Part shown: positions 12,901 through 35,000 of the stretch, piece after piece | Layout of the letters: every line of letters begins with the position of its first letter | Position numbering within the stretch: position 1 is the first letter of the stretch | Origin: an archaeon | GTDB taxonomy: Archaea > Micrarchaeota > Micrarchaeia > Anstonellales > Bilamarchaeaceae | DNA: 35,357 nt | NCBI GenBank assembly: GCA_020052735.1 | Contig: JAGVON010000076.1 | Span: 1-35,357, forward strand | Direction of reading: 5' to 3' | The notes under the pieces: generated by a model | Seen by the model: only the letters and a program-made list of their open reading frames with translations | Told to the model about the DNA's origin: nothing | Databases searched by the model: none | Program-made: the position numbers and the translations under genes

Positions 12901-12913
12901 CTGCTTTAGTTTT

Positions 12914-14311: not shown

Positions 14312-14341
14312 GTTGAAAGATACTATCCAAAGAACATCGTC

Positions 14342-14665: not shown

Positions 14666-14729
14666 TTTTTCTCCAGGCGGTGCGTTTCCTTTTTAATTAC
14701 ATTCATTTTAGAAGTATTAACTGTTTCTT

Positions 14730-16283: not shown

Positions 16284-16302
16284 TTCATTTTGGTGAAAGC
16301 CG

Positions 16303-16767
16303 TCAGCTGCATTCCACAGAATCAATAATCCTGTCCACCATCTCTTTTTTGCCGGTGTAGGCGTCCCTGCCGCACCCTATCATGGTTATGTAGACATTAT
16401 TGCCCTCGCAGGAGAGCAGCCTTATGGAGCCCCTGTACTGGTTGCTCTCGTCGCTTGCCCTAACCTGGAAATCGGCAACGGATGCGCCCACATACTCGTT
16501 TTCTATTGTCAGGCCGTCCACGCCCTCCCATAGCCCCTTGAGATAGGTGACAAATCCGCTGAAGGAGGGCTGGTCCCCTATCTTCATCACGCTAATTTGG
16601 CAGCCCTCGGAGGCGACCTTGAATATTTCGTCCCCTTCGGTCTGCTGCATGGTGCCCGCGGGATATTCCATGCTGAACTGGTCATCCGTGAAGGTTTCCC
16701 ATTTCTGGCCTGCGCATCCGAAAAGCAGCAGCAATGCTACGAACAAGGAGATGTGTGTGGCTTTCAT
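16303..16767 (-). CDS. Putative lipoprotein, hypothetical
   Basis: MKATHISLFVALLLLFGCAGQ signal/lipobox. Confidence 0.7.
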   Translation of the reverse strand: MKATHISLFVALLLLFGCAGQKWETFTDDQFSMEYPAGTMQQTEGDEIFKVASEGCQISVMKIGDQPSFSGFVTYLKGLWEGVDGLTIENEYVGASVADFQVRASDESNQYRGSIRLLSCEGNNVYITMIGCGRDAYTGKKEMVDRIIDSVECS

Positions 16768-16820
16768 GGAACCGGTTAGGAGAATGCAGATATAAAAAGA
16801 TTGCGGGTTTCGTCGGCTGG

Positions 16821-18332
16821 CTAGAGGTGCTTCGCATACTCTTCCGCGAGAAGGAGATATCTCCCTATTTTGCCCTTTTCCTCATCAGAAGGGTGCTGGG
16901 AGTATGTGAGGCAGGCTATTTTCGCGCGTACGTTGGCGCGGTAGCATTTGTAGTAGTTGAGGAGGGCGGGCATGCCCTCATCTTTGGAGAGCCGGAGGTA
17001 CTCGGAAACGAATAGATTGGATAAGTCCTTCCTCCCGTACGCATCCAAATCCATGGCCATGAAGCCGATGTCCGCAGAGGTGTCGGTATAGCGGAAGCCC
17101 TTGTTGAACTCTATGCAGTCAAAGATTGCGATGGGCTCCGTGAGGAAGATATTCCCGGAGTGCAAATCCCCGTGGCAGTCGCGGATGAAGCCCTTCTCCT
17201 GCCTCCGGAGAAACAGAAAATGATTTTTGCGGACGAATTCCGCGGCTTTATCCAAAATAAAATCCACTTTGTTTCCCATTCCGCTGGCCTTTTCCGCGGT
17301 TTCGCGCACTCCTTTTAGGTCCGCGAACTGTTCGGCAACCATTTCCGGGGAATTGTATCTGCAGTCTTCTATCACTTCTATTTTGGAATGGAACTCCGAG
17401 ATGATTTTGGCTATTGAGCGGATGTGCGCCTCAGCGACTTCCCCTTTTGCGAGCATGAGGGACATCATTTTCCCATAAGGGAGCTGCCTCATCTTCACCG
17501 CATAATCAATTGGAAATCCTGAGCCGCCGAAAGATGGGTGCGAATTCATGGATACAGGGACTACGCCCAGATAAACGTCGGGGCAGAGGCGCCTGTTCAG
17601 GCGCACCTCCTCTTCGCAGAGGGCTTTCCTCCTCCCGCGGGTGGAGAAGTCCAGGAACGAAAACTTCACGGGCTTCTTTATCTTGTATGCGTATTCTCCT
17701 GTTAGAAAAACCCAGGAGATGTGCGTCTGGAGGAGTTTGATGCTGGAAGCGTGGGGCGGGGTGCTGGGTGCTGTGTGCTGGGTGCCGGGAAAGGGGTGCG
17801 GGAAAGCGGAGGGGGATTGGAGCTGCGGAAGGAGAGGGGATATTCCGGAAACGGAACTGAGGATTGTGCGCAGGGATTCCTCCACCGGAAGGGAGGTGTC
17901 TATCGTGATGCGTTCTTCGGTAAAGGGCTCAAATGCCTTCGTCACTATGAGGTATTCCTCATACTTCGCCTCGCTGCCCCCTCCCCTGCGGCCCGAAAGC
18001 CGTTCCTTCACCTTTTCTTCGGGAAGGGTGCACTCTACGATGAAGAAATCCGTCCCTGCCTTTTCCGCGGCTTCCTTCATGCTTTTCCTCAAGCTTTCCT
18101 TGTAGAAGGTCGCATCAGCAATCACATTTTTGCCTTCGGAAAGGGAGAAGGAAACCTGCGCGGCCATTTCCGAATAGACGCGGGCCTTTTCCTCTTCCGA
18201 GTATGTGCGCTCCTTCAGCAGTTTTTGGCGGATCAAATCGGAGCTTACGTGCGCGGCGCCCAGCCTGGAGGAGAGCTCGCGGGAAATCCTGCTCTTCCCG
18301 GTCCCCGGAAGGCCTGCGACGAGTATGAGCAT
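16821..18332 (-). CDS. Fusion of P-loop kinase (N-terminal) and aminoglycoside phosphotransferase-like domain (C-terminal)
   Basis: LVAGLPGTGKSRISRELSSRLGA...VIADATFYKESLRKSM (AAA_33/COG0645-like); C-terminal FIRDCHGDLHSGNIFL..IAIFDCIEFNKGFRYTDTSADIGFMAMDL (COG2187/APH-like). Confidence 0.85.
   Translation of the reverse strand: MLILVAGLPGTGKSRISRELSSRLGAAHVSSDLIRQKLLKERTYSEEEKARVYSEMAAQVSFSLSEGKNVIADATFYKESLRKSMKEAAEKAGTDFFIVECTLPEEKVKERLSGRRGGGSEAKYEEYLIVTKAFEPFTEERITIDTSLPVEESLRTILSSVSGISPLLPQLQSPSAFPHPFPGTQHTAPSTPPHASSIKLLQTHISWVFLTGEYAYKIKKPVKFSFLDFSTRGRRKALCEEEVRLNRRLCPDVYLGVVPVSMNSHPSFGGSGFPIDYAVKMRQLPYGKMMSLMLAKGEVAEAHIRSIAKIISEFHSKIEVIEDCRYNSPEMVAEQFADLKGVRETAEKASGMGNKVDFILDKAAEFVRKNHFLFLRRQEKGFIRDCHGDLHSGNIFLTEPIAIFDCIEFNKGFRYTDTSADIGFMAMDLDAYGRKDLSNLFVSEYLRLSKDEGMPALLNYYKCYRANVRAKIACLTYSQHPSDEEKGKIGRYLLLAEEYAKHL
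17761..17788. repeat. Tandem heptanucleotide repeat, 4 copies
   Basis: GTGCTGG GTGCTGT GTGCTGG GTGCCGG within the linker of the kinase/APH fusion. Confidence 0.85.
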
Positions 18333-18356
18333 GCAGGGATTTGGGGCGCGTTATTT

Positions 18357-20897
18357 TTAATCGTGATTATATCTCGCATAATAGACCTTCTTTGAGATTT
18401 CCACTACCAGGACGTATGCGAGGACTATTCCGAACACAACCCCCAGCTCAAACAGGGTGAGGGGCTGGAACTGGAATATTATCCCTATGGGCAGGGTGAC
18501 CAGCAACACCGAAACGGCCACGATTATGAGCGTGAGCAGAATGAGGAGCGGGCTGGGCATGGACTTGTAGAAGGGCTTCATCGTGCGTATAGCAAATACA
18601 ACGAGGATTTCGGAGAGGAGGGATTCCAGGAACCATATGGTGTGGAACACGGTTTCGCCTGCGCCGAGCACAAGGATGATGAATGCAATGGTGAGGACGT
18701 CAAATACCGAGCTTATCAGCCCAAAGAATATCATGAAACGGACTATCCCCTTTATGTCCCACCTGCGTGGCTTCTTCAGCTCGTCCTTGTCCACGTTGTC
18801 CGTGGATACGGAGACCATAGGGATGTCTGAAAGGAAATTGTTGAGGAGTATCTGGGAGGGCAGGAGGGGGATGAAGGGAAGGAAGAGCGAAGCGGCGGAG
18901 AGGGTGAACATGTTCCCGAAATTGGCGCTTATGGTGTTCCTTATGTATTTCATTATGTTGCTGAAGGTCATCCTGCCCTCGGAGATGCCGTTCGCGACCA
19001 CGTTCAGGGATTTGCGGAGGAGCACTACGTCCGAGGCCTCCTTCGCGATGTCCGCCCCGTTCTTCACCGATATGCCCACGTCCGCCGCCTTGAGCGAGGG
19101 GGCGTCATTCACGCCGTCGCCCATGAAGCCCACAATGCGGCCGTTTGCGCGGAGCGCATTGACAACGCGGAGCTTGTCCGAGGGGCTCATGCGCGCATAT
19201 ATATTGTAATTCTTCACGGTCTCCTGCAATTCTTCGTCATCCTGGGATTCCACCTCCGCGCCGGTGAATATCCTTTCCGCGGCGTTCTGCACGCCCACCT
19301 GGGCGCATATGCCTGCGGTGACCTCCGGCCCGTCCCCTGTGAGCACATACACCTCAACGCCCAGCCGCCTGAGGTGGTCAAGGGCGGGAAGAGTGTCCTT
19401 CTTCGGCGGGTCCAGGAGTATGAGGAAGCCCATGAACACCATCCCCTCCTCGTCTTCCTTTGAGTATTCCTCCTTCTTCCCGGGCTTTTTGTATGCGACG
19501 GCGATTACGCGGTAGCCGTCCTCCCCGAACTTGTTATACATCCCTTCTAGCTTTTTGGAGTATGGGCGGATTGGGATTTCCTTCCCGGAGATAAGAAGCT
19601 TGGAGCATATGGGAAGCACGGTCTCCGGGGCGCCCTTCGTGATGAGCAGCCTGCCCTTTGAATTGTCAACTACTACGCCCATGCGCTTGCGCTCATAATC
19701 AAATGCGATTGTTTCAACCGGCGCGTATCCTTTAAGCCGCTCAATCTGGAATCTTTCCAATGCATATTTCCAGACGGCGGAGTCTATCGTGCCGCCCTTC
19801 ACGTGGCCGTGCTGGATGACTGCGGAGTTGCATAAGAGGGAATACAGGAGTATCTCATCGTTTTCATTCCCCATCGCGTCCAGGTAGCGGATCAGCGAGA
19901 CCTCGTTCTCGGTGAGGGTGCCGGTCTTGTCCGCGCACAATATGTCTATGTTGCCAAGGTCCTCTATTGAGTCAAGGCGCTTTACGATTACATGCTTCTC
20001 CATGAGGCGCATCGCGCCGTGGGAGAGCCCTATGGTTATTATTATGGGAAGGAGCTCCGGGGTGATGCCCACCGCGATTGCGAGGGCGAAGAGGAATGAG
20101 ACGAGCAGCCCGTGGCCCAGAAGTGAATTGATTATGAAGACAAACAGCGTCATTACGAGGATTACCTTCAGGAGCGTGTTGCCGAAGGAGCGGATGCTCT
20201 TCTCAAAATCCGTCTGCGGGGCGGGCGCCTTGAGCGCGGCGGATTCCTTCCCCATGTATGTGGCCCTGCCCGTGGAAACCACGATTGCCTTCCCTGAGCC
20301 ATATGTGATGCTGGAGCCCATCAGGAGCATGTTTTGGCCGGAGGCCTGGGGGCCGCCCTGGGCAGGGAGCGCATCCTTCGCCACGGGATTGGATTCCCCG
20401 GTGAGCGCCGCTTCGTTTGTTTCCAGCTGGTGCGCCTCAATGATGCGCGCGTCCGCGGGCACTATGTCCCCTATGGAGATGAGGACTATGTCTCCGGGAA
20501 CGAGGAACTTCGTGTTCATCTCCACAATCTGGCCGTCGCGCACCACGTGCGCGGACATTGAAACGTATTTTCTCAGCTCTTCCAGCGCCTTCTCCGAGCG
20601 GTATTCCTGCACGAAACCTAGGACGGCATTTACGAACACTATTATGAAAATGATGATTGCCTCGGTCGTGTCGCCGAGGAGGAACGCGATTATTGTCGCA
20701 ACGATTAGGATGTAGATGAGGGGGTTCTGGAACTGGGATACGAGGATGCGGGGAATTGTTTTCCGGTCCGGCGGCTCCAGCTCGTTCGTCCCGTACTTTT
20801 GGAGGCGGAGCTTGGCTTCCTTGGAGGATAAGCCGTCGCTGGATGTGGCCAGTGAAGAGAACAGCTCCGCGGGCTGCATCTTCCGGTATTCCTCCAT
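18357..20897 (-). CDS. P-type ATPase, magnesium-translocating (MgtA-like, P3B)
   Basis: AVGITPELLPIIITIGLSHGAMRLMEKHVIVKRLDSIEDLGNIDILCADKTGTLTENEV; TGES; VGFMGDGVNDAPSLKAADVGISV. Confidence 0.93.
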   Translation of the reverse strand: MEEYRKMQPAELFSSLATSSDGLSSKEAKLRLQKYGTNELEPPDRKTIPRILVSQFQNPLIYILIVATIIAFLLGDTTEAIIIFIIVFVNAVLGFVQEYRSEKALEELRKYVSMSAHVVRDGQIVEMNTKFLVPGDIVLISIGDIVPADARIIEAHQLETNEAALTGESNPVAKDALPAQGGPQASGQNMLLMGSSITYGSGKAIVVSTGRATYMGKESAALKAPAPQTDFEKSIRSFGNTLLKVILVMTLFVFIINSLLGHGLLVSFLFALAIAVGITPELLPIIITIGLSHGAMRLMEKHVIVKRLDSIEDLGNIDILCADKTGTLTENEVSLIRYLDAMGNENDEILLYSLLCNSAVIQHGHVKGGTIDSAVWKYALERFQIERLKGYAPVETIAFDYERKRMGVVVDNSKGRLLITKGAPETVLPICSKLLISGKEIPIRPYSKKLEGMYNKFGEDGYRVIAVAYKKPGKKEEYSKEDEEGMVFMGFLILLDPPKKDTLPALDHLRRLGVEVYVLTGDGPEVTAGICAQVGVQNAAERIFTGAEVESQDDEELQETVKNYNIYARMSPSDKLRVVNALRANGRIVGFMGDGVNDAPSLKAADVGISVKNGADIAKEASDVVLLRKSLNVVANGISEGRMTFSNIMKYIRNTISANFGNMFTLSAASLFLPFIPLLPSQILLNNFLSDIPMVSVSTDNVDKDELKKPRRWDIKGIVRFMIFFGLISSVFDVLTIAFIILVLGAGETVFHTIWFLESLLSEILVVFAIRTMKPFYKSMPSPLLILLTLIIVAVSVLLVTLPIGIIFQFQPLTLFELGVVFGIVLAYVLVVEISKKVYYARYNHD

Positions 20898-21020: not shown

Positions 21021-21773
21021 ATGGCATCCGTCCATGGAAGGATTCTGTTTTCGGCGCTGGCCGCATTGTTTCTTGTTTCGGTTGCATACGCGCAGGCGGC
21101 GGGAGGCGACGCGCCAACGCACGGCACGTTCACCGGCACCGTGAACGGACCGAGGATAGACATAAACTACGTGCCTTGCCCGGACACGAATTGCGGCAAG
21201 ATAGTGCTTGTGCAGGTGGTCTGCAGGAAGGTCATCCTGAAGGATGACGGATGGTTCCCATTCATGCCGAGCGACGCGACGGCCGCATGGACCGAGAAGG
21301 ACGCCTCTACCGTGGACGGCGGGAAATTATGCACGGTGGATTACATCAACAATCCGGTTGAGCCGGAAAAGGGCGAGAAGGATCCATATTACAACGGGGA
21401 CGACCCGCAGGACGGCGGGGACAGGGGGGCTTCCACCGGCTCGGGCAACGCCGCGGACACGAAGAACGCCACCATCAATGACAAGCCGCGCTACGCGGAC
21501 AGGAACTTTGACTGGCTGCGGAGGAAATACGGGGACCCGGTGGGAAAAACCATAGAGAAGGTAACGCTTGAGTTTGAGGTCTGCGCCTTCTGCGCGGAGG
21601 GGAGGGACAGGGGCGCGAATTACGGCTGCTACCGATGGGATTACAACCAGAACCCCGGCCAGGAGGGGGCGGCATCGGATGCGGGCGGGAGCGGCGGGGC
21701 CTCGGGGAAATTCAACGAGGCGCTTGATGCGTGGTCAGCGGCACATGGGTTCAACCTGCCGAGGCCCGGGTGA
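21021..21773 (+). CDS. Secreted hypothetical protein
   Basis: ORF 20964..21773; ATG at 21021 gives signal peptide MASVHGRILFSALAALFLVSVAYAQA; several Cys (CPDTNC, VCAFC, YGCYRW). Confidence 0.7.
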   Translation: MASVHGRILFSALAALFLVSVAYAQAAGGDAPTHGTFTGTVNGPRIDINYVPCPDTNCGKIVLVQVVCRKVILKDDGWFPFMPSDATAAWTEKDASTVDGGKLCTVDYINNPVEPEKGEKDPYYNGDDPQDGGDRGASTGSGNAADTKNATINDKPRYADRNFDWLRRKYGDPVGKTIEKVTLEFEVCAFCAEGRDRGANYGCYRWDYNQNPGQEGAASDAGGSGGASGKFNEALDAWSAAHGFNLPRPG

Positions 21774-22639
21774 TGGCTATGAAGAAGGAGATTATACTTT
21801 TGGCGGCGTTCGGGGCATTGCTGATTGGCTGCACATTGAGGCTGCCGGATGGGACGGTTGTGGAGTTCCCGCCGGACCTAGGCGGGGGCGCGGCGCAGGA
21901 ATGCTTCTCCAGCGACGATTGCGCGTATAACGAGAGGTGCGCAGACGGCGATTGTGCGCTTGTGCCCGCGGGGGAATGCGGAACCTATTCCAACCACGCA
22001 TGGCAGGATTACGAGTGCTGCGCAAGCCCGGATTGCGGAGCCGGGTTCCAATGCACGGAGAATGAATGTGTGCCGGGCGGGGCACAGCCGGAGTGCGCTT
22101 CGGACTCCGAATGCCCGCAGGGATATGGGTGCGAATCCGGGGGCTGTGTAGAGTTACAGCCCACTCCGGGATGCACGCTGGACAGCGACTGCGCGGAGGG
22201 CTTCACCTGTAGCGGGAATGTGTGCGTGCAGATACCTCTGGAACAGTGGGGCGGCGTGGAGATGAAATTTACATACATAGGGCCGCAGGAGAAAATAGTC
22301 CCCAGTGTGGGGATTTCGGTCGGGGAGTTTGATTTGGCTGGGTTCGGGGGCGGTACCGAAGGGTTTGATTACAGCAACGACTTATATGAGATGGAAACCT
22401 TCAGGGTAACCGAGGAAGAGATGCGGGATTCCGTGCTTTCGGTGTTCTCCCTGGAATTCATGGACTCGGAGAATGCGCCCGAAGACCCCGCGGTATCCTT
22501 CATGGTTTACGACGCGGGGAGCGGAAACGTGGAGGAAATAATCCTGGACAGCGGGCAGGCGGGCATTGTGGCGGAGGCGATAAGGGATTCGCTCACCACT
22601 TCAATAGGGGATGCAGGTCCCCTGGACATATACGGATGA
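21773..22639 (+). CDS. Putative lipoprotein with Cys-rich C-x5-C-x5-C-x4-C repeat module
   Basis: MAMKKEIILLAAFGALLIGC lipobox; ECFSSDDCAYNERCADGDC..., ECASDSECPQGYGCESGGC, GCTLDSDCAEGFTCSGNVC; start overlaps the preceding stop (TGATG). Confidence 0.8.
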   Translation: MAMKKEIILLAAFGALLIGCTLRLPDGTVVEFPPDLGGGAAQECFSSDDCAYNERCADGDCALVPAGECGTYSNHAWQDYECCASPDCGAGFQCTENECVPGGAQPECASDSECPQGYGCESGGCVELQPTPGCTLDSDCAEGFTCSGNVCVQIPLEQWGGVEMKFTYIGPQEKIVPSVGISVGEFDLAGFGGGTEGFDYSNDLYEMETFRVTEEEMRDSVLSVFSLEFMDSENAPEDPAVSFMVYDAGSGNVEEIILDSGQAGIVAEAIRDSLTTSIGDAGPLDIYG

Positions 22640-23984: not shown

Positions 23985-25301
23985 TCAATACCTCCTTACA
24001 TACCTGGGCGGCCTTGGCGGGGGCGCCTCGTGTTGCGGGCGCACAAGCCCGCTGCGCAGTACCCAACGGACATCAAACTCCTGGCGGTCATGCCCGGGGC
24101 CGAAGGGGCCGCAACTGAGGATTCTGCCGGTTCCGATCCGGTTGCATGTTACCGCCCTCCACCTTCCGTCCCGCAGGTGCGCGTCGCACCTCAGCCGGCT
24201 GTTGTTCACTTTGGAGCATTCAAAACCCACGACATCATAATCTTCGGGGTGCCGCTGGCGGCCTGAGGATTCCGCCCCGGGGGCGGTTCTTGAATGCGTT
24301 GGCTGGGCAGGGGGGCGTTCCCCCATGTCCGGGACTATCCTTGGGCCGCGGTGCCCGTCTTGGACCATTGGCAGGGGAGGGGTTGGCGGGGCGGTTTGGC
24401 GTGGTGCCTCATTTGCCGCATCCATTGCCGGTTCCCGGAGGCGCTCCGTAAGGGCAACAGTTTCATCTTCGGGCTGTTCCTGCTCCGGTTCGGAGGGCTG
24501 CACGACGCCCACGGCTGCATCCTCATGGTGGCCCCTGGACAGGAACTTGCGTATGTCCTGCCAGTACGCAAGTGTGAATATTGTCCCGATTATCAGCACG
24601 GCGGAGGCGGCCAATGAGATGAACAGTACCTTGTCGTCCGAAAACCCGGGAGAAAGCGATATCCTGGGGAGGAATGAATCCGATTCCTTCCATTCGAAAT
24701 ACTTGGGCTGGGAAGGGCGTGATGGGCATGGTATGTGGCGCTCTGCCGGTGGGGGGGAATCGTAATAATAGTTGACTAATTCCAGGATACGTAACCCCCT
24801 TCTGTCTATTATTTCATCGTCCGTCATGCTTTTGTAATCATCCAGGTCTTGGTGATGAATCGAATCCTCATTCCTGGCCTCCGCGTAGTGAATCCTGCGA
24901 TGAACCGAGCTTCCGCTTTCAGAATCCCCACATGAACGCCCATGGAATTCGTGGAACCCCGCGCTCCCTCCCGGGCTGGAGAATCCATCAACGGAGATTC
25001 CGTCCAGGTCGGTGTGGACATCCCTGTCATCGTAATGCTCGGTGCGGCTCCTCACATCCAAGGGGCTCACGCCAGTATGTATGTCGGCATCCCCATGCCG
25101 CTCGGTATGGCCGCGGAAGTCCAACGGGCTTAATCCATGGTGGTCAAGTCCGCCGTAGGCATTGGGTTCGCTCCTGCCACGGAAGTCGAACGGGCTTACT
25201 CCATAATGTTCCTGTTTGCCCGTTTCTTCGTCTATTTCAGTATGGCCGATAAATCCAAATAGACTACTCCCCTTATAGTGGTCTACCCGCTTAGTCCCCA
25301 T
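23985..25301 (-). CDS. Transmembrane protein with N-terminal repeat region and Pro-rich/Cys C-terminal region
   Basis: ORF 23985..25418; ATG at 25301 (MGTKRVDHYKGSS) preferred, TATA-like TTTTTAACTT about 26 nt upstream. Repeats GVSPFDFRGRSE/GLSPLDFRGHTE/GVSPLDVRSRTE; TM VLFISLAASAVLIIGTIFTLAYW. Confidence 0.75.
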   Translation of the reverse strand: MGTKRVDHYKGSSLFGFIGHTEIDEETGKQEHYGVSPFDFRGRSEPNAYGGLDHHGLSPLDFRGHTERHGDADIHTGVSPLDVRSRTEHYDDRDVHTDLDGISVDGFSSPGGSAGFHEFHGRSCGDSESGSSVHRRIHYAEARNEDSIHHQDLDDYKSMTDDEIIDRRGLRILELVNYYYDSPPPAERHIPCPSRPSQPKYFEWKESDSFLPRISLSPGFSDDKVLFISLAASAVLIIGTIFTLAYWQDIRKFLSRGHHEDAAVGVVQPSEPEQEQPEDETVALTERLREPAMDAANEAPRQTAPPTPPLPMVQDGHRGPRIVPDMGERPPAQPTHSRTAPGAESSGRQRHPEDYDVVGFECSKVNNSRLRCDAHLRDGRWRAVTCNRIGTGRILSCGPFGPGHDRQEFDVRWVLRSGLVRPQHEAPPPRPPRYVRRY

Positions 25302-25348
25302 AATAGTATTACTGCGCAAAAAGTTAAAAATAGGAAATAAGCAGGGGG

Positions 25349-28300
25349 CTACTTCTTCTCCCTGCCCTTCCTGTAAATGTAGTACGCCACCAGCAGGATG
25401 ATGATGAGCCAGAGCCACCAGAGGTTAAGTATCGCACCCCCGATGCCGCCCTGAGTGGTGGGCCTCTGCGGCCCCACGGGCGTGGGCTCGGGCCCCCCCG
25501 GTGTGGGCGTCTCCACGCACACTGTGTTGGTGCACACGAAGCCGGATTCGCAATCCCCGTCCTCAACGCATTCCGGAGGAACCGGGGGCGGCAGTATGCA
25601 GGCGCCAGAAGCGCAAACGTAGCCCTGCTGGCACTCGTTGTCAAGGGTGCATCCCGTGGGCTGCGGGACTTCCCTCTGCACGCATTCGTGCTCCGTGCAC
25701 TGCTCGCCCTGACCGCAATCAGAGGAGGAGCAGCACTCATAGCTCTCCCATTCATGGTTGGAATAGGTTCCGCATCCGCCTTCAGGGACCTTTTCGCATG
25801 CGCCCTGCGTGCATCTCTCATCATATTTGCAATCATCACTGGATTCACATTCCGTTGGCGCAACCGCGGTGAAGGAATCGTTTGCTGCCACATAGCCGAG
25901 CTTGGTTGCCCTTATCGTGTATAATCCGGCGTTCTCAGGGGTGAAGAACACCCTGCCCCAGGGGTCCGTGTAGCCGCTGAAGGCGGTTTCGCTTGCGAAC
26001 GTGATTGTCACAAGCGCGCCCGGGAGCGCAACATGGCCCTCGTGCTCCACTATGATGGCCATCTCGTTTCCAGTGGGGACTTCATCCTCCGCCACTATGG
26101 AAAGGGGTTCGTCCGCGGAGGGGTTGCCGGACTGTGTGGTGGTTGTGGTCGGGTTGGCCACCGCCTCCACCCATGCGCCGCTAGCCGCAGTTGAGGCGTC
26201 GTCGCTGCAGTTCACAGTGAAGTTATATGTCTGCCCCGCGGTCAAGCTGAAGTTCAGCGTCATGGAGGTGAGGGAGCTGTTCTCCACGGACTCATTGGTG
26301 CCGCCTGCAATTGTCCCATCAACGTATATGGTGCAGTTGAGGGTGGAATTGTCCGCGTCCGTGGCGTTGAAGATTATTATGGGCGTGAGCGACACTATCT
26401 CGCTGTTGTTCGCCTGCCCGTCTATGCTGGTTATGTTCACGGTCGGGAGGTAATTGAGGTTGTTGGTGAGGGGGAGGTAATCTATGCTGTCCGCAGGGGA
26501 TACGACGTTGAATGTCGCGTTCAGCTCGTATACGTCAACGCCGGCAGCGTCACCGGTGCCCATATAGCCGAGGGCTAACCAATCCACCAGCGTGTAATCA
26601 TAGCAGTATACGTCCGCCTTGACTACCCCTTTGTTCACTTCCCCGGCCACTTTCACCTGGAGCGGTTCCGTGCTCAGGCAGTCAGGCCCCCAATCAGTCC
26701 CGATGTTCGTTTCAGTTTCGGAACCTCCTGCCTTGATTGTGATGCTGCCCGAAGCGGTGGAGGCGCCCGCCGGGATGGTGAAATTGTAATAGCCCACCGC
26801 GCCGCTGGCTGCGTTCCCGTAGGTGTCCCAGTCCTGGTCGTAGGTATTCACGAAGTCCACCCATGTGCCCGTGCTGGCCTGCTGGAATGAATAGGCGTTC
26901 TGGGGCGCTGACGCGGAATAGTTGTTTACTGTGTAGGGTGTGTTCCCTATCCCGTCGCCGTCCGTATCCACCCCGGTGTAGTTGGAATAGAAGTTCCCTC
27001 CCTTGTATGCGCCCCCGATTATGTTCGTCCCAAGGGTTTTGGAGATGTTCCAATATTCATATGTGTTGGAGCTTATCACGCCCTGCGAGCCGCTCGCGTT
27101 CACGAGGTTGTTGTAAATCACGTTGGCGGCGCTCTTGTCTATGGCTATCTGGTGAACGCTGTTGTTCGCGACTATGTTGTCCATGAGGATGTTGTAGCCC
27201 GCCGTCACCGCCAACTCGGACATGTAGATGCCGTACAAGGTGTTGTTGGTTATCTCGTTATCCGTTAGATTGCTGTATGCCGCCGAATTGAAGTACACGC
27301 CGTAGTAAAGGCCGAAGATGGTGTTGTTGAAAATAACGCTGTAGTCCGCGCCTGCCAGCTGGATGCCGCTGGCCGCAGGTCCGTCATATATGGTGTTGTT
27401 GTATATCCTCTCGGCTGCGCTGGTGAAAATGCCATACGCGGTATTGTTGTGGATGACGTTCTGCGAGATGTTGTTGTCCACTCCGACCATGTAGAAGCCC
27501 GCCTCGGTGTTGTTGAACATATCGTTGTCCATCAGCGTGCCGTAGGCGGAGCCGACATATGCGCCTTCCGTATAGTTGGACACTGAGCAGTTGATTATGG
27601 AAACGTTCGTGAGCAGGGCATTGGTATATACGCCGTAGTAGACTCCGGCGGCAGTCCAGTCCCCGGTTATGGAATAGCCGTCGCAGTTTAGGGTGACGTC
27701 CGAGACGTCTATGTACATGCATGCGTCAATTGGCCCGGCATAGGTCCTATATCCGACCGCGTCGTATGTGAGCGTATAGGTCATTGGCGAGGAAATGTTC
27801 GTGCAAGTGACGACGGTGAGGGTGTCCGATGCGGTGGCGTTGGTGTAATTCCCGTTCCCCGTCGCGTTGCACTCGTATACATATGTGCCCTGCGCGAGCG
27901 TGGTGATGTCCTGCACAGAGGAGAAGCTGCTGTTCACTTCCACCCCGTTCCTGTAGAGGGTGAGGTTGACCTCTGAATTGCTGGCGTTGCAGGTCACGTT
28001 CGTTTCGGTGCCAAGGAATACGCTGGCGCTCGGCTGGATTGAGATGGATAGGGCGGTTATCTCCTCGCCGATTGCATAGGCGGAGAAGCCGGATACGCCG
28101 AAAGCCGCTATGTCGTTCGTGCAGGTGAAGGTTAATGGGACGTAATGCCTGCCCGTGTCCAGGACTTCGGCCAGGGTCAGCGGAACGTCGTAATCCCTGA
28201 GCACCCCCTGGCTGCAGTTGGAGGTGCTTACGGTTATGTTCGCGGAAACGTTCGCCTGCGCGGAATTGGCGCTGGTGTCATTGACGTAAACGAAATCCGG

Positions 28301-29116
28301 CTGCAGGAAGACGGTGCCTACGACTGGGGCGGGAGGGTATTGATACAGGGCGAGGCTGGAGACGTTCAGGTGGGTGAAGCTTACCCACCCTACTGTTGAG
28401 TTGTATCCGATAGTGAAATTGGTGAGGTTGTTGGCCGGGCCCCCCGTGTCGTACTGGGTGACAAAGTTGCTCTGGTTGTAGATGAACATGTTGGTGACGT
28501 TGTTGTAATAGGCATCGGCTGCCATGATCAGCGCATAGCCGGTGGTGTTGAACACGACGTTGTCAATGAGCGAGTTGTTTTGGCTGCCGCTGCTGACCAC
28601 GAAACCCACCCCCGAATCGTCCGTGGCGTCGCGCATGGTGTTGTTCGCGAAGGTGTTGTTGCTTGAGCCGACTCCCAGGAGGATCTGCGCCATGCGGAAC
28701 CCGTAGCTCGTATTAATGGCGCTGTTGTTAATGAGGGTGTTGTTCTTGGAGGACAGGAGGTTGAAGCCGATGTAGTAGCCGGACACCGTGCAGTTGCTTA
28801 CGAGCTCGCTTCCAAACGCGCTAATGGTCCCTATCTCTATCCCGGACCCGCTCCCGTTGCTCTGCAATATGGAGCTGTTGCAGTCAAGGCTCAGGCCGGA
28901 GTTGTTGAACTGCAGGACGGGATAGTACAAGTCCGATGGGATGATGTTGTATGTGTCCGTGCACAGGACTGTATCTTCGTTGATGTAGATTATGCCTGTG
29001 GTGGAATCGTTCACTATCATCGTTCCCCATGTGAGGTCGTTCGAGAGGTTCGCGCACTGCGCGGTGAGCGTTGAAACAAAGGCCAGGACTAGGATGACGG
29101 CGATGAAGCTCCTCAT
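25349..29116 (-). CDS. Giant surface protein: parallel beta-helix (NosD-like) repeats, Ig-like domains, Cys-rich module, C-terminal TM anchor
   Basis: 1255 aa; signal MRSFIAVILVLAFVSTLTAQC; repeats such as NNTFANNTMRDATDDSGVGFVV; Cys module ECESSDDCKYDERCTQGAC...; C-terminal NLWWLWLIIILLVAYYIYRKGREKK; TATA 27 nt upstream. Confidence 0.88.
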   Translation of the reverse strand: MRSFIAVILVLAFVSTLTAQCANLSNDLTWGTMIVNDSTTGIIYINEDTVLCTDTYNIIPSDLYYPVLQFNNSGLSLDCNSSILQSNGSGSGIEIGTISAFGSELVSNCTVSGYYIGFNLLSSKNNTLINNSAINTSYGFRMAQILLGVGSSNNTFANNTMRDATDDSGVGFVVSSGSQNNSLIDNVVFNTTGYALIMAADAYYNNVTNMFIYNQSNFVTQYDTGGPANNLTNFTIGYNSTVGWVSFTHLNVSSLALYQYPPAPVVGTVFLQPDFVYVNDTSANSAQANVSANITVSTSNCSQGVLRDYDVPLTLAEVLDTGRHYVPLTFTCTNDIAAFGVSGFSAYAIGEEITALSISIQPSASVFLGTETNVTCNASNSEVNLTLYRNGVEVNSSFSSVQDITTLAQGTYVYECNATGNGNYTNATASDTLTVVTCTNISSPMTYTLTYDAVGYRTYAGPIDACMYIDVSDVTLNCDGYSITGDWTAAGVYYGVYTNALLTNVSIINCSVSNYTEGAYVGSAYGTLMDNDMFNNTEAGFYMVGVDNNISQNVIHNNTAYGIFTSAAERIYNNTIYDGPAASGIQLAGADYSVIFNNTIFGLYYGVYFNSAAYSNLTDNEITNNTLYGIYMSELAVTAGYNILMDNIVANNSVHQIAIDKSAANVIYNNLVNASGSQGVISSNTYEYWNISKTLGTNIIGGAYKGGNFYSNYTGVDTDGDGIGNTPYTVNNYSASAPQNAYSFQQASTGTWVDFVNTYDQDWDTYGNAASGAVGYYNFTIPAGASTASGSITIKAGGSETETNIGTDWGPDCLSTEPLQVKVAGEVNKGVVKADVYCYDYTLVDWLALGYMGTGDAAGVDVYELNATFNVVSPADSIDYLPLTNNLNYLPTVNITSIDGQANNSEIVSLTPIIIFNATDADNSTLNCTIYVDGTIAGGTNESVENSSLTSMTLNFSLTAGQTYNFTVNCSDDASTAASGAWVEAVANPTTTTTQSGNPSADEPLSIVAEDEVPTGNEMAIIVEHEGHVALPGALVTITFASETAFSGYTDPWGRVFFTPENAGLYTIRATKLGYVAANDSFTAVAPTECESSDDCKYDERCTQGACEKVPEGGCGTYSNHEWESYECCSSSDCGQGEQCTEHECVQREVPQPTGCTLDNECQQGYVCASGACILPPPVPPECVEDGDCESGFVCTNTVCVETPTPGGPEPTPVGPQRPTTQGGIGGAILNLWWLWLIIILLVAYYIYRKGREKK

Positions 29117-29224
29117 GCGTCCGCCTACTCTTATTAGATTTATAAATGTTGCTGACGTTGGCGGAAAATTGAAAAAACAGGGAGAAAATGGGGGGGAAAA
29201 TAAAAAATTAAAGGAAGGAGGGGC

Positions 29225-32200
29225 TCACTTCTTCCTGGGCCTTCCCCTCTCCTCTTCCTGCGCTATGAGCTCTTCCTGCGTCCTGGGGGCGCGCCTGCCC
29301 TTCCTCTTCTTCCAGAAGAAGAACCAGAGCAACAGCAGCAGCGCCAATAGCAGGACTATGAAGACGAAGGACTTCTGCACGGCGTTCGCTATGTTGCCCA
29401 GGAGGCCCGATATGCCCCCTCCCTCAACGCCGCCGCCTCCTATGACAGTCTGCTCGTCCACGCAGGCGTTCTCCCTGCACAAATAGCCAGAGCCGCACTG
29501 GGCGTCCGCGGTGCATTCCTCAATGGGCTGCTGGGCGCATAGCCCGGTGGTTGCGCACCCATAGCCCGCGGGGCAGTCCGAGGCGATTGTGCATGGCCTT
29601 TCCTCAGGGGGAACCTCGTCCCTCGGGACGCACTGGCCTCCCCTGCACAGGTCGCCCTGGCCGCAGTCCTCGCTTGACTCGCATTCCTGGCATTCCTGGC
29701 TTGAGGGCAGGGTGCCGGAGGTCTCGTACCGGATTCCGTCCTCCCCTGTCGCGACTATCAGCACGTAGCCGTCCACCGCGTCGGTGGTTGCCTGGCCGTT
29801 CTCATCCGTGGTGTAGGTCCCTATGAGCTCGCCGCACTCAACCACTTCCGCTATGTAGGGCTCGGGGCAGCGGTAAACGTCCACCCTGATGCCCTCCGCG
29901 GGGCGCCCTGCACAGAGGACCATTGCAGGCAGCCCGGCCGTGGCCGGCTCAACGCAGCCCTCCTCCATGACCGATATCGTGCTCGGGCAGCCCGGGTCAA
30001 ATGTCAATTCCGTGATTTCGGGCGGCTGCTCGGCGCACTCCTCCGAGGAGAGGAGCGGCACCAGCCTCTCTATGGCGCCGTGCGTTGCGGCCGCGGGCAC
30101 GACCACGACTATGTTCCCGTCCGTGTAATCTACGCTGACTTCGCCGTTTGAGTCCGTGGTGAGCGTTTCAAGGAGCGCGGTGCAGTCCTCGCCTTCGCAC
30201 CTGCATCCCTCGCCTTCACACCCGTATATCTGCACTGTTTCCCCGGCGAGCGGCACCTGCCTGCATACAAGCGCTCCCATCGTGGGCTCGGAAGGCGCCT
30301 CCTCGCACACTTCCGTGTATATGGATATGGTGGTGCTTGTGCAGCCCAGCTCCACGCCTACGTTGACCGGAGTTGGCTCCACCACGCGGAAAGTGCCGTC
30401 CGTGTCGTAGCAGTCGCCGAAGAACGCCGCGTAGGTGTATGTGCCGGTTTCTGTCGGCGTGAAGAACACGTAGCCGCGGGTGTCCGTCCTGTATGAGGTT
30501 GTCGTTCCACCGTGTATTATGTTTACGTCCGCCCCGGACAGTGTGGTGTGCGTGGGGTCGTCGTCGCTGTACCTGAATATCTGGATTGCGGTCTCGCCGC
30601 CCGCCGGCACCTCGCCCATGGCAAGCGCCTCAAGGTAGCATTCCGGGGTTGAGCCCCCGCCGGAAGAGACGGTTACGACATGCATGGTGCCGCTGGCGCT
30701 CGCGGAGGTGTAGTTCTCGCTTCCGGTGGTGTTGCAGATATATGAGTATATGCCTGCCGGCAGCATGGCGATGTCGTGGATTTCGGAGGTCCCGTTGGAC
30801 ACGTTGACATCGTTCCGGTATAGTGTGAGGTTAACCGCCGAGTTGCTCGCTGCGCAGACCACGTCCGTGGCAGTGCCGACCCGCGGGCGGCTGGGTGTCG
30901 TGAGCGTCAGCGTGGTGGTTATCTTCTCAACGAGGTAGCCGGTGACGGCCGTCGCGTTCGCGGCGGTGTAGTTCTCGTTGCCGGTTGTGTTGCACGTGAA
31001 GTTGTACGTGCCCACGGACAGGTTCTGCATGTAACTGGCGGAGCCGTTCGCGGAGCTCACAACAACGCCGTTCACGGATATGTTCAGGACCACCTGGGGG
31101 TTGCTTGCGCTGCACGAGATGTTGGTCTGGTTGCCGACAGTGGTTGGGCTGGCGGGGACAACCGTGAATGATGTAATCGTGGTCGTCTCCTTGCCCAGCG
31201 TGTAGCCGGAGAACCCGGAAACGTTGAACGTCGCCAGGTCGCCGCTGCACGTCTTCACCGTGCCGTTGTAGTGCACGCCGCTGGCGAGGATTGCCGCCAT
31301 GGAGGCGGGGAACCCGGTCGCCCGGATTACGCCGAGCGTGGAGCAGTTGCTGTTATTTATGGTTATATAAGCGGGGACATTCCCGTCCGCCGCGCCCGCA
31401 TCCGAGGAATCCATGGAAACCCAGTCCGGCCTGAGGTATATGTTCACGCCGTCCACGAGCTGCAGCCCCGTTGTAACGTTGATGGACTGGTACCTTATGA
31501 TGCCTACCGTCGCGTTGTAGCCCAATGTGAGGTTCGTGAAGTTGCTGTCCGAATCTGCCGAGAGCAGGGCTATGTTGGTGTGGTTGTATGCCAGGGTGTT
31601 CGTGAAGAGGTTTATGGCGAGGGGGCTGGAATAAATCCCGTATCCTCCGTTGCCGTATGCCACGGAGTCCGTGAAGTTGTTGTCCATGGAGTTTGCCGCG
31701 GAGAAGCCCCTGTTCGCGTTGTTGTAGCTCGTGCTGTTGGATATTGTGCTGCCGTTCGCATAGCTCATGAAGAAGCCATGGGTGTTGTTGTATGCGACGT
31801 TGCGCTGCAATACGCTGTAGTTGGAATATTCCACCCTGAAGCCGTTGGTGGAATCGTAGGCGGTGTTGTTTGTGAGGATGCTGCTGTTGGTTCCGATGAG
31901 ATAGAAACCATACACTTCGTTGTTGTAGGCGGTGTTGTTGGCGAGGTTGTTGCCGGAGCTGGATTGCAGGTGGAAGCCGGTGACCGTGTTGTTGTCCGCG
32001 ACATTGCTTGTGAAGGTGTTGCTGTTGGAGCTTGTGACCAGATAGAAGCCGTACCAGTTGTCGTATGCCGTGTTGGTGATGAGGTCGTTGATGTTTGAAT
32101 TCATGAGGAGGTAGAAGCCCTGGGTGTTTCCGTAGGCGGTGTTGTTTATGAAGGTGTTCTCATCTAGGTAAAATTCTATGATGAAGCCGGCGTCCGTGTT

Positions 32201-34903
32201 GTTGCGGGCGGTGTTGTTCGTGAAGGTGTTGTTGGAGGAGTAGTCGGAGAGGTAGTAGCCGAAGCTTGAGTTGAACGCGATGTTGTTGGACACGTTGTTG
32301 TGGTTGGAGAGGTAGCCTAACTGGAAGGCGTTCGTGGCTTCGCTGAGGTCGTTGCCGATGAAATTGCTGTAAGTCGCCGAATTCACGCCTATGCCGTAGG
32401 TGTTGTTGTAGGCGGTGTTGTTCGCCATCATGCAATTTGAGCTGTTGAAAATCCAGAGTCCGCTCTGGCCGTTGTCATAGCCGGTGTTGTTGGCCACTAT
32501 GCTCCCGTTTGAATATTCAAGGTAGATGCCGTCGTGGTAGACCGTCAGCCGGCAGTTCATTATCGTGTCGTTCTCCTTGTTGGAGGAATAGATGCCGTCC
32601 CCCGAGCCGGCTACGCCCTGCAGGAGCGAGCTGTTGCAGTCAAGGAAGATGTTTGAGGAGTTCATCTGGATTGCCTGGTCCGCGAGGACGACCTGGTTGG
32701 AGATGGTATAAGTGTCCGTGCAGAGCGTCGTGTTCCTGTTCACGTTGAGTATGCCGGTCACGCTGTCGTTCACGACTTTCGCGCCCCAGGTGGCCGTGTT
32801 GGAAAGGTTCACGCATCCCACCGTGTCGTTCATCGTGTAGCCGGAGAAGCCGGTCACGTTGAAGGTGGCGGTGTAGGGGGCGGCTGCGCCCGTGCATGTG
32901 GTCGCGGTTGTGTATGCGAAGCTGCTGAGCATGATTTCCGCAACCGAAGCCGGGAAGCCGTATGCCTTCAGAACCGGGAATGCGCAATCATCCGTGTAGA
33001 CGGTTATGTTCGCGGAGAGGTTTGCCTGCGTTGCGTTGGTGTCGTTGAGGGACACGAAGTACGGCTGCAGGAGGACGTTGGTGGTGTTCAGGAAAACGTC
33101 GGTTATGTTCAGGAGGTTGAAGTTTATCCAGCCGATTGTTGCGTTGTAGCCCAGGGTGAGGTTGGTGAAGTTGTTCTCGGTCTGGGCTGCCATCGCCCCC
33201 TGGAACAGGTAGTGGTCCTGGGTGTGGACGAGGGTGTTGGTGAAGTTGTTCCGGGAAGTGGTGCCCTGCAGCCAGATGCCGAAATCCAGGTTGCCGTATG
33301 CCACCGTGTCTATGAAGGTGTTGTTAAGGACGGTCAGCGAGAGCATGAAGCCGCGCAGCGTGTTGTTGTAGGCGAGGTTGCTGGTAAAGGTGTTGTTCTT
33401 GCTGCCGCCGGTCAGTATGAAGCCGTTCTGCGTGTTGTTGAATGCGGTGTTGCTGGTGAAGGTGCTGTTCTCCACGCCGGTCAGGAAGAAACCCGTGCTG
33501 GCCGTGCCGGTGGATGCGACGTTGTCGGTGAGTGTGGTCTGGTCGGCGGTGGCGATGTTGAAGCCGTAGAGCCCGTTGTTGTACGCGTTGTTGCTGAAGA
33601 ACGTGTTCAGGTTGGAGTTCGTGCTGGAGAACCCGTCCAGCACATTGTCGCGTGCATAGTTGTCGGAAAGGATGTTTGAGACCGACTGGGAAAGGAGGTA
33701 GCCCTCCTCGCCGTTGGAGTACGCGGAGTTGTTGGTGAGGTTGTTGTAGTCCGCCTGGAGGAGGTTGAAGCCATCCACAGTGTTGCTGAAGGCGGTGTTG
33801 TCGCTGACGTTGTTGTAGGCCGAGCCCTGGCTCATGTTGACGCCGTAGCCGTTGGAGGACGCGGTGTTGTTCTCCACCACGTTGGAGGACGCGGCGGAGA
33901 TGTGGATGCCCGCGCCGTTGTTGGATGCGGTGGAAAAGCCGAGGGTGTTGTAGTATGATGAAGCGGTGATGGCGAAGCCGTTCTTTGGGTTGTCAAACGC
34001 GGTGTTGTAATTGATAGTGCTGCTATTGGACTGGGCAAGGTGGAAGCCGTTGAGGGTGTTGTTGTATGCGGAGTTGTTTAGGATTGTGGTGCTTATCGCA
34101 GATAGAAGGTAAACACCATATTGGGAATTGTTGTAGGCGCTGCTGTTTGAAACGGAAGTGAAGTTGGAGTTTTCAATGTCAAAACCATATGGAGTATTGT
34201 TATACGCGGAGTCATTGTCAAAAGTATTATAGTGGGCATTATCGGTGGAGAATCCCTTATTAACGTTACCAAACGATAGACTATGCTTCACGGTATTATT
34301 GTTTGAGGTAGTAAGGTAGAAACCCATATTTGTGTTGTTGTATGCTGAGCTTCCTGTGAAGGTGTTATTCTCTGCCCCCTCCAGGTAGAAGCCCGTATCC
34401 GAGTTATTGTACGCCGTATCATTCAAGTAAGTCGTGTTGGCCGAACCGATGCTGAAACCATAAAGGGTATTGTTGTAAGCCACGCTGTTTGAGATGACGT
34501 TGTTCCTGGAATTTGCAGGCAGGATGAAACCGCTCCCGGTATTTTGGGTGGTGTGCGCGATTACATTCGTAATGAAGCTGTCATTGGCGGAATTCAACCT
34601 TACTCCAAAGGAGTGGTTGGCCACGATGCAGTTCTGGAGCGTGACGTTGTATGTCTGGTACAGATAAATGCCCGTGCTGCCGCTCTCGTTCCCTGTCAGG
34701 GTTTTACTGTTGCAGTTAAGGGTGACGTTTGAGATGTTTATGTATATGCATGAGCCGGTCCCGCCGAATATGGAATTGCCGGTGATGTCGGCATCAACGG
34801 TGTAGCTACCCGGATTGGTTATGTTCGTGCAGGCAACAAACTGAGAAAAGCCGAAACCCATCAGCCCCAATAACGCCACGAGAACGAATGTGCGCCTGAA
34901 CAT
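29225..34903 (-). CDS. Giant surface protein: two parallel beta-helix blocks, Ig-like domains, carboxypeptidase-regulatory-like domains, Cys-rich module, C-terminal TM anchor
   Basis: ORF 29225..34927; ATG at 34903 (MFRRTFVLVALLGLMGFGFSQ signal peptide) preferred, TATA about 27 nt upstream. About 23-aa repeats AYNNTxxGFxLxxSxxNT; C-terminal FVFIVLLLALLLLLWFFFWKKRKGRR. Confidence 0.88.
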   Translation of the reverse strand: MFRRTFVLVALLGLMGFGFSQFVACTNITNPGSYTVDADITGNSIFGGTGSCIYINISNVTLNCNSKTLTGNESGSTGIYLYQTYNVTLQNCIVANHSFGVRLNSANDSFITNVIAHTTQNTGSGFILPANSRNNVISNSVAYNNTLYGFSIGSANTTYLNDTAYNNSDTGFYLEGAENNTFTGSSAYNNTNMGFYLTTSNNNTVKHSLSFGNVNKGFSTDNAHYNTFDNDSAYNNTPYGFDIENSNFTSVSNSSAYNNSQYGVYLLSAISTTILNNSAYNNTLNGFHLAQSNSSTINYNTAFDNPKNGFAITASSYYNTLGFSTASNNGAGIHISAASSNVVENNTASSNGYGVNMSQGSAYNNVSDNTAFSNTVDGFNLLQADYNNLTNNSAYSNGEEGYLLSQSVSNILSDNYARDNVLDGFSSTNSNLNTFFSNNAYNNGLYGFNIATADQTTLTDNVASTGTASTGFFLTGVENSTFTSNTAFNNTQNGFILTGGSKNNTFTSNLAYNNTLRGFMLSLTVLNNTFIDTVAYGNLDFGIWLQGTTSRNNFTNTLVHTQDHYLFQGAMAAQTENNFTNLTLGYNATIGWINFNLLNITDVFLNTTNVLLQPYFVSLNDTNATQANLSANITVYTDDCAFPVLKAYGFPASVAEIMLSSFAYTTATTCTGAAAPYTATFNVTGFSGYTMNDTVGCVNLSNTATWGAKVVNDSVTGILNVNRNTTLCTDTYTISNQVVLADQAIQMNSSNIFLDCNSSLLQGVAGSGDGIYSSNKENDTIMNCRLTVYHDGIYLEYSNGSIVANNTGYDNGQSGLWIFNSSNCMMANNTAYNNTYGIGVNSATYSNFIGNDLSEATNAFQLGYLSNHNNVSNNIAFNSSFGYYLSDYSSNNTFTNNTARNNTDAGFIIEFYLDENTFINNTAYGNTQGFYLLMNSNINDLITNTAYDNWYGFYLVTSSNSNTFTSNVADNNTVTGFHLQSSSGNNLANNTAYNNEVYGFYLIGTNSSILTNNTAYDSTNGFRVEYSNYSVLQRNVAYNNTHGFFMSYANGSTISNSTSYNNANRGFSAANSMDNNFTDSVAYGNGGYGIYSSPLAINLFTNTLAYNHTNIALLSADSDSNFTNLTLGYNATVGIIRYQSINVTTGLQLVDGVNIYLRPDWVSMDSSDAGAADGNVPAYITINNSNCSTLGVIRATGFPASMAAILASGVHYNGTVKTCSGDLATFNVSGFSGYTLGKETTTITSFTVVPASPTTVGNQTNISCSASNPQVVLNISVNGVVVSSANGSASYMQNLSVGTYNFTCNTTGNENYTAANATAVTGYLVEKITTTLTLTTPSRPRVGTATDVVCAASNSAVNLTLYRNDVNVSNGTSEIHDIAMLPAGIYSYICNTTGSENYTSASASGTMHVVTVSSGGGSTPECYLEALAMGEVPAGGETAIQIFRYSDDDPTHTTLSGADVNIIHGGTTTSYRTDTRGYVFFTPTETGTYTYAAFFGDCYDTDGTFRVVEPTPVNVGVELGCTSTTISIYTEVCEEAPSEPTMGALVCRQVPLAGETVQIYGCEGEGCRCEGEDCTALLETLTTDSNGEVSVDYTDGNIVVVVPAAATHGAIERLVPLLSSEECAEQPPEITELTFDPGCPSTISVMEEGCVEPATAGLPAMVLCAGRPAEGIRVDVYRCPEPYIAEVVECGELIGTYTTDENGQATTDAVDGYVLIVATGEDGIRYETSGTLPSSQECQECESSEDCGQGDLCRGGQCVPRDEVPPEERPCTIASDCPAGYGCATTGLCAQQPIEECTADAQCGSGYLCRENACVDEQTVIGGGGVEGGGISGLLGNIANAVQKSFVFIVLLLALLLLLWFFFWKKRKGRRAPRTQEELIAQEEERGRPRKK

Positions 34904-35000
34904 GTGCTTCAAATCCATAATAAACATTATAAAGGTAGCGTCAAGGTGGAGTTTGTGGATAAGGGAAGGTTTTTAAACATTAAACACCGTGTATAACAAC

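What the first reader, a model, noticed from the sequence alone, without database searches (positions are those of the whole stretch)
25349..34903. Two tandem giant beta-helix surface proteins built from the same modules in permuted order
Seen directly: the 1892-aa protein begins with module A (CTNITNPGSYTVDADI...CIYINISNVTLNCNSKTLTG), then helix and cap, and has module B in the middle (CVNLSNTATWGAKVVNDSVTGILNVNRNTTLCTDTYTI...LDCNSSLLQ). The neighbouring 1255-aa protein begins with module B (CANLSNDLTWGTMIVNDSTTGIIYINEDTVLCTDTYNI...LDCNSSILQ) and has module A in the middle (CTNISSPMTYTLTYDAVGY...CMYIDVSDVTLNCDGYSITG). A cap module (LGYNATxGW...LQPxFVxxND...FNVSGFSGYT) occurs three times: about 33170-32835, 31545-31195 and 28415-28065. 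Ig-like units also recur in both (SCSASNPQVVLNISVNG, VCAASNSAVNLTLYRND, TCNASNSEVNLTLYRNG). This suggests the cassettes recombine to diversify a surface structure, which is inference.
Basis: partly seen in the sequence, partly recalled or inferred. Interest (0 to 1): 0.62.

Follow-up and report, generated by a model that had tools for sequence, protein, structure and literature searches.

The report
Mix-and-match beta-helix surface proteins
Two neighbouring genes of a tiny-genome archaeon encode long, rod-shaped, membrane-anchored surface proteins assembled from the same interchangeable building blocks; the blocks really are the same and really are in different order, but such reordering is normal in this protein family and, at this locus, old rather than an active shuffling device.

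Summary
Both proteins have a signal peptide, asparagine-rich right-handed beta-helices, Ig-like units, a Cys-rich stretch and a C-terminal membrane anchor. The A/A, B/B and cap/cap pairs are homologous (z 18-38 over shuffles), with orders A-cap-B-cap-Ig-Ig and B-cap-Ig-A. A and B are two kinds of N-terminal head of a beta-helix; the B head plus its helix is modelled confidently. The fold of 'cap' stayed unresolved. Between the two window proteins there is no sign of recent exchange (A 42%, B 51-55%, caps 39-47% amino-acid identity), and A-cap-B is collinear in a congeneric species. Among 43 head-to-head steps in relatives, AB (7) and BA (8) are about equally common, so a mirrored pair is unremarkable. 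However, modules have reassorted within the family: an A-headed and a B-headed paralogue share a cap-Ig stretch that jumps from about 40-60% to 97% DNA identity inside the cap, and p2 shares an 80%-identical tail with a gene whose upstream part differs. Best reading: a paralogous adhesin-like family of a DPANN archaeon that evolves by unit addition, duplication and occasional ectopic exchange. No reverse transcriptase and no convincing invertible repeats were found.

The parts
29225..34927 (-). p1, 1900-aa beta-helix surface protein (A-cap-B-cap-Ig-Ig-REG-Cys-TM)
   Evidence: ORF; Beta_helix E 1e-70, NosD 3e-63, para_beta_helix 2e-63; module HMMs
25349..29116 (-). p2, 1255-aa beta-helix surface protein (B-cap-Ig-A-...-REG-Cys-TM)
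   Evidence: ORF; NosD E 6e-27, Beta_helix 3e-18; module HMMs
34826..34891 (-). p1 signal peptide (hydrophobic residues 13-34)
   Evidence: hydropathy peak
34679..34837 (-). p1 head module A, start of helix 1
33176..34678 (-). p1 beta-helix 1, rungs of about 23 residues
   Evidence: rung spacing
32828..33175 (-). p1 cap 1
32603..32818 (-). p1 head module B, start of helix 2
   Evidence: modelled as helix start
31547..32602 (-). p1 beta-helix 2
   Evidence: model pLDDT mostly 88-98
31193..31546 (-). p1 cap 2
30653..31174 (-). p1 two Ig-like units
30353..30604 (-). p1 REG (CarboxypepD_reg/transthyretin-like) unit
   Evidence: weak TTR-52 hit nearby
29462..29692 (-). p1 Cys-rich repeats (DUF7107-like)
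   Evidence: (E 1e-4)
29303..29395 (-). p1 membrane anchor
   Evidence: hydropathy
28847..29059 (-). p2 head module B
28433..28846 (-). p2 beta-helix 1
28067..28432 (-). p2 cap
27812..28051 (-). p2 Ig-like unit
27650..27811 (-). p2 head module A
26909..27649 (-). p2 beta-helix 2 (no cap module after it)
   Evidence: NosD best stretch 571-715
25847..26077 (-). p2 REG unit
   Evidence: CarboxypepD_reg E 0.004
25517..25849 (-). p2 Cys-rich repeats (DUF7107)
   Evidence: E 3e-7, above curated cut-off
25373..25450 (-). p2 membrane anchor
   Evidence: hydropathy

Best explanation
p1 and p2 are two members of a paralogous family of secreted, membrane-anchored, probably N-glycosylated beta-helix surface proteins of a DPANN archaeon, most likely adhesin-like rods used for cell-cell or host contact. 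Shown: each is a string of units [head A or B - beta-helix - cap] with Ig-like spacers, a REG unit, Cys-rich repeats and a C-terminal membrane anchor. The order differs because each protein has, from long ago, a second helix unit of the other head type: p1 = A-unit plus B-unit, p2 = B-unit plus Ig plus A-unit. Single-unit paralogues of both kinds (C41 with head A, C111 with head B) sit side by side elsewhere in the same genome. Units and tails spread by duplication, ectopic recombination and gene conversion between paralogues, as ordinary homologous recombination among repeated genes would do. Inferred: the rods are adhesive, and variation in unit number and type changes reach or binding specificity. 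That p1 and p2 arose by addition of a unit, rather than by loss of one from C41 and C111, is also inferred.
For: Family hits and topology. B-head plus helix model confident as beta-helix, nearest solved folds NosD, alginate epimerases and phage depolymerases. p1 collinear with congener G003:C63 through A-cap-B, 33% over 852 columns, E 3e-83. p1 705-1401 collinear with C111 (B-cap-Ig); p1 33-331, 354-709 and 943-1412 match C41 (A-cap-Ig-Ig-Ig). Nearest neighbours of p1's Ig units and REG are in C41, of its B in C111; of p2's B in C111 and of its tail in C106 (89%). C111 and C41 adjacent by an exact 99-bp contig overlap. C111/C92 identity step from 40-60% to 97% inside the cap, with 271 bp at 94%. 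C106/p2 777 bp at 80% with an unlike upstream part. Internal duplications at 86-91% DNA identity in G014. Sequons 93 and 59 against 48 and 23 in shuffles, nearly none in the tails; an STT3 relative just over cut-off.
Against: No binding partner, expression or phenotype is known; adhesion is by analogy. The sequon excess partly follows from the Asn-rich rung motif, and the STT3 hit is weak. Head trees rest on 50-65 columns and are poorly resolved. p2's cap and p1's cap 2 grouping together is not rejected (p-AU 0.38), so co-inheritance of the B-helix-cap unit between p1 and p2 stays possible. C92 ends inside the shared stretch, so the full tract is not seen. A single MAG without read data cannot exclude strain mixture.
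Confidence: 0.72

Rival explanations
1. Active cassette shuffling: the p1/p2 locus is a recombination hot spot that swaps A, B and cap cassettes between the two genes in living populations to vary a surface structure, as in antigenic or phase variation.
For: Shared modules in different order; paralogues with a recent exchange tract; neighbouring genes differ between congeners around the UbiA gene.
Against: p1/p2 module DNA is at most about 83% identical and only over 40-50 bases; blastn finds no long high-identity tract between p1 and p2; p1 order conserved in G003; no reverse transcriptase; no strong inverted repeats.
Confidence: 0.1
2. Independent recruitment: A and B are just the two common start elements of archaeal beta-helices; p1 and p2 acquired them separately, with no exchange between the two genes at all.
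For: Both heads, in all four pairings AA 15, BB 13, BA 8, AB 7, occur across the order; the ends of A and B are alike.
Against: B heads of this genus cluster together, if weakly; caps of p1, p2, C41 and G003:C63 form a starred clade (98/96), so units were copied within the lineage.
Confidence: 0.15
3. The proteins are secreted polysaccharide-acting enzymes (epimerase, lyase or glycosidase on a beta-helix) and not adhesins.
For: Nearest solved structures include alginate epimerases, lyases and phage depolymerases.
Against: PDB sequence matches are weak (E 3e-4 at best); the mannuronan epimerase motif DPHD is absent; multi-unit rods with Ig spacers and a membrane anchor fit a structural role better (inference).
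Confidence: 0.08

Closest known systems
[quoted passage not shown]
   Same: Large archaeal surface proteins built of one or several right-handed beta-helix domains plus archaeal big domains (ABD) and a membrane anchor; many paralogues per genome; in subgroup IB the relative order of beta-helix and ABD domains is not fixed; adhesion inferred, not shown.
   Different: Here the anchor is C-terminal (mostly N-terminal in ALPs), helix units end in a 'cap' module that matched no Pfam family, Cys-rich DUF7107 repeats are present, and the organism is a DPANN archaeon.
Giant surface and LamG/PKD proteins of nanohaloarchaea, including SPEARE proteins (PMC10266531)
   Same: DPANN, signal peptide, tandem Ig-like domains, membrane anchor, presumed host contact.
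   Different: SPEARE proteins carry beta-propellers, about 75 Ig domains and a VirB4/TraG-like ATPase; no beta-helix is reported in the passages read.
VARTIG modules of Thermococcales (PMC8416519)
   Same: Archaeal Ig-domain proteins with recombination between genes.
   Different: VARTIG variability lies in a hypervariable C-terminal Ig domain in a gene module organised like polymorphic toxin systems; here units of beta-helix heads, caps and tails reassort and no such module was seen.
NosD (nitrous oxide reductase maturation) family
   Same: Same right-handed beta-helix fold and repeat; NosD chains are among the best fold matches.
   Different: NCBIfam NosD score 74.6 against a cut-off of 300.

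Membership tests
Right-handed parallel beta-helix proteins (Pfam PF13229, TIGR03804) | Profile match above curated cut-off | tested here: met
   p1 236 bits against 25.9 and p2 66 against 25.9; TIGR03804 210 and 53 against 19.45
Right-handed parallel beta-helix proteins (Pfam PF13229, TIGR03804) | Predicted beta-helix fold | tested here: met
   B head plus helix modelled with 306 residues at pLDDT 90 or more; Foldseek to beta-helices
NosD copper family (TIGR04247) | Subfamily score cut-off 300 bits | tested here: not met
   74.6 and 34.7 bits
Archaeal adhesin-like proteins (methanogen ALPs) | Right-handed beta-helix and/or ABD repeats with a membrane anchor | tested here: inconclusive
   Beta-helix, signal peptide and anchor present; the ABD profile itself was not compared, and the anchor is C-terminal
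Archaeal adhesin-like proteins (methanogen ALPs) | Adhesive function | not testable with these tools
   Needs binding assays
Diversity-generating retroelement targets | Reverse transcriptase in the genome | tested here: not met
   No RVT_1 match in the 88%-complete genome; the search rang in 3 of 14 control genomes
Invertible (site-specific) phase-variation cassettes | Inverted repeats flanking the modules | tested here: not met
   Best pairs are 18-27 nt, 70-89% complementary, and do not bracket the modules
VARTIG | Hypervariable C-terminal Ig domain and downstream Ig-gene array | not tested
   Strain-level data were not available; p1/p2 end in REG, Cys and a membrane anchor, not a C-terminal Ig

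The most novel reading that the evidence does not exclude
In this DPANN lineage the scattered beta-helix genes act as a donor pool, and frequent ectopic gene conversion, with breakpoints inside the cap, keeps re-pairing heads, helices and tails so that host-contact proteins are diversified within the species, without any dedicated recombinase.
Probability: 0.12. Interest if true: 0.6.

Novelty: new member of a known kind. Interest (0 to 1): 0.33.

Why it matters
DPANN archaea are thought to depend on contact with other cells, yet the proteins that make the contact are mostly unknown. This family gives a defined candidate set in one lineage, a unit grammar (head-helix-cap, Ig, REG, Cys, anchor), a lineage-restricted cap module with no Pfam family (18 of 301 phylum genomes), and DNA evidence that paralogues exchange parts. 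It also shows that a permuted module order between neighbours is not in itself a sign of active shuffling.

Tried and rejected
Recent shuffling between p1 and p2: rejected, no long high-identity DNA between them. Simple circular permutation of a periodic array: rejected, because reading p1 into p2 gives A-B then B-A, a mirror order that shifting a breakpoint in an A-B-A-B array cannot give. Retroelement-driven diversification: no reverse transcriptase. Invertible cassettes: no fitting inverted repeats. NosD membership: score far under cut-off. Enzyme reading: epimerase motif DPHD absent. Viral origin of module B: no relative in the viral contigs. Fold of the cap: the model stayed at pLDDT 43, so it was not interpreted and not searched; its only PDB sequence match was E 0.08. 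Whether the upstream divergent gene makes G003:C63 the positional orthologue of p1: only weakly supported (pairwise E 0.005; a first comparison in the wrong frame gave nothing). Whether p2's cap is nearer p1's cap 1 than cap 2: not decided (p-AU 0.38). Literature searches for DPANN beta-helix surface proteins found no direct description in the held library.

Full report
SETTING. The window is the whole of contig C6 of a 1.09-Mb, 112-contig, 88%-complete archaeal MAG. It is therefore a DPANN archaeon near Iainarchaeota (Diapherotrites) or Micrarchaeota; the public labels disagree. Neighbours of the two genes downstream are a 439-aa membrane protein, tRNA-Asp, a UbiA prenyltransferase and a P-type ATPase.

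OBSERVATION. Both ORFs and all listed segments are present at the stated places. The homology of A with A, B with B and the three caps is far beyond chance (z 18-38). Architectures by iterated HMMs: p1 A-cap-B-cap-Ig-Ig-REG-Cys; p2 B-cap-Ig-A-REG-Cys. Both have an N-terminal hydrophobic signal and one C-terminal membrane span, followed by basic residues. Low pI (4.3, 4.1), about 10-12% Asn and a doubled number of N-glycosylation sequons, nearly all outside the tails, fit an exposed glycoprotein; an STT3 relative is present but weak.

WHAT THE MODULES ARE. A and B each precede a run of beta-helix rungs of about 23 residues. Modelled with seven window or permitted related sequences, head B plus helix 2 of p1 forms a confident right-handed beta-helix (most blocks pLDDT 88-98 to about residue 380), while cap and Ig units were not resolved. 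Foldseek returns NosD, alginate epimerases and phage depolymerases. A and B share their last 28 columns in profile comparison: they are alternative helix-start elements. A second model of the cap alone failed (pLDDT 43). The cap matched no Pfam family in p1 or p2; it was found in 18 of 301 genomes of the phylum, 15 of them in the window's family.

IS THE PERMUTED ORDER SPECIAL? In relatives of the same order, among 43 successive head pairs in multi-unit proteins, AA 15, BB 13, BA 8 and AB 7. B-cap-A occurs in G009, G030 and G021 (three other genera), A-cap-B in G003 of the same genus, and B-cap-B-cap-A-cap-B in one giant protein of G014. From these frequencies, two random two-unit proteins would show opposite mixed orders in roughly 6% of cases (2 x 7/43 x 8/43), so this is unremarkable in a genome with several such genes. 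These counts come from loci chosen because they matched, so they are rough.

IS IT RECENT? Between p1 and p2 the best module DNA matches are 70-83% over 40-65 bases, and blastn finds nothing longer than a 203-column match at 67%. p1 residues 6-837 align collinearly to the congener's G003:C63 protein (33%, E 3e-83), including A-cap-B. That order is therefore most simply older than the split of the two species. The genome context is partly shared: G003:C35 has PurH, the 439-aa gene, an AAA gene, UbiA and, beyond it at the contig end, the tail of a related gene (Ig-Ig-REG-Cys). That tail is nearest p2 in REG and Cys (46% and 40%), but has the Ig-Ig-REG layout of p1. If C63 and C35 are two ends of one gene, it joins a p1-like front to a p2-like tail; the gap between the contigs is not closed, so this is a lead only.

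IS THERE REASSORTMENT IN THE FAMILY? Yes. (1) C111 (head B) and C92 (head A): DNA identity 35-57% through the helix and first part of the cap, then 97-99% in the second part of the cap and 89-96% into the Ig unit, third codon positions included, up to the end of contig C92. No Ns are in these contigs. (2) C106 and p2 share 777 bp of tail at 80% while the parts upstream are unlike. (4) In G014 three copies of two stretches are 72-86% identical within one ORF, and another pair is 91% identical.

A SIMPLE ACCOUNT. The same genome holds single-unit relatives: C41 (A-cap-Ig-Ig-Ig-REG-Cys) and C111 (B-cap-Ig, then REG beyond an in-frame stop). Contigs C111 and C41 overlap by an exact 99 bases, so these two genes are neighbours too. 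p1's front matches C41 and its stretch 705-1401 matches C111 end to end; p2's front (1-419) matches C111. Nearest neighbours of p1's Ig units and REG are C41's; p2's REG is C106's (89%). The mirrored order is then explained by each of two differently headed proteins carrying a second unit of the other type. Gain of the unit and loss from the relatives cannot be told apart here.

FUNCTION. By inference the proteins are rods of tens of nanometres at most, carried on a Cys-rich stalk in the membrane and used for attachment. The nearest described systems are methanogen adhesin-like proteins, in which beta-helix and ABD domains also vary in order (PMC11532034), and nanohaloarchaeal giant surface proteins (PMC10266531). 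Recombining archaeal Ig proteins are known as VARTIG (PMC8416519). None of these was shown to be the same family. No experiment bears on binding.

VERDICT. Observation confirmed; interpretation partly supported: family-level reassortment is shown, but ongoing cassette shuffling at this locus is not. A new set of members of a known kind, with a lineage-restricted cap module.

Noticed in passing
L050 (G000:C111) 2447-4963 and L049 (G000:C41) 1-3137: The B-headed gene in C111 carries an in-frame TAA at 4601-4603; homology (REG, Cys, membrane span) goes on behind it into C41, so it is either a broken gene or a sequence error. C111 and C41 share an exact 99-bp overlap.
   Followed up: partly
L050 2317-2367 and L052 (G000:C92) 6444-6494: 51 bp at 94% identity between the region just upstream of the C111 beta-helix gene and the end of what looks like a TnpB-type transposase gene in C92; possibly an insertion-sequence remnant.
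   Followed up: no
window 21731-22639 (+): A lipoprotein-like gene carries the same Cys-rich repeats as p2 (56% identical over 134 residues); the CGTYxNHxWxxYxCC unit recurs in several otherwise unlike surface proteins of the genus.
   Followed up: partly
window 23985-25304 (-): A 439-aa membrane protein with degenerate repeats of about 22 residues (SPLDFRGHTE-type), 70% identical in G003 but in a different place relative to the AAA and UbiA genes; no Pfam match.
   Followed up: partly
L053 (G003:C35) 7217-10582, L172 (G002:C42) 2519-5923, L165 (G004:C15) 2-1240: A different surface protein of about 1,120 aa sits beside UbiA in three congeners (truncated by the contig end in G004) and is absent at that place in the window: gene content around UbiA varies.
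   Followed up: partly
window 4810-6264 (+): Large chain of RuBisCO in a DPANN genome, next to genes for a FeoB-type iron transporter and an iron-dependent regulator.
   Followed up: no
window 1260-1976 (-) and L049 3976-4731 (+): AbiEii-type nucleotidyltransferase gene next to tRNA-Pro, and what looks by sequence like another member beside the beta-helix gene of C41 (the latter not scanned).
   Followed up: no
window 29117-29224: The 108-bp gap between p1 and p2 holds a TTTATAAA box about 25 bases before the p2 start, which suggests that p2 has its own promoter.
   Followed up: no
L056 (G014:C12) 7578-19001: A nearly 5,000-aa beta-helix protein with heads and caps in the order B-cap-B-cap-A-cap-B and internal duplications at 86-91% DNA identity.
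   Followed up: partly
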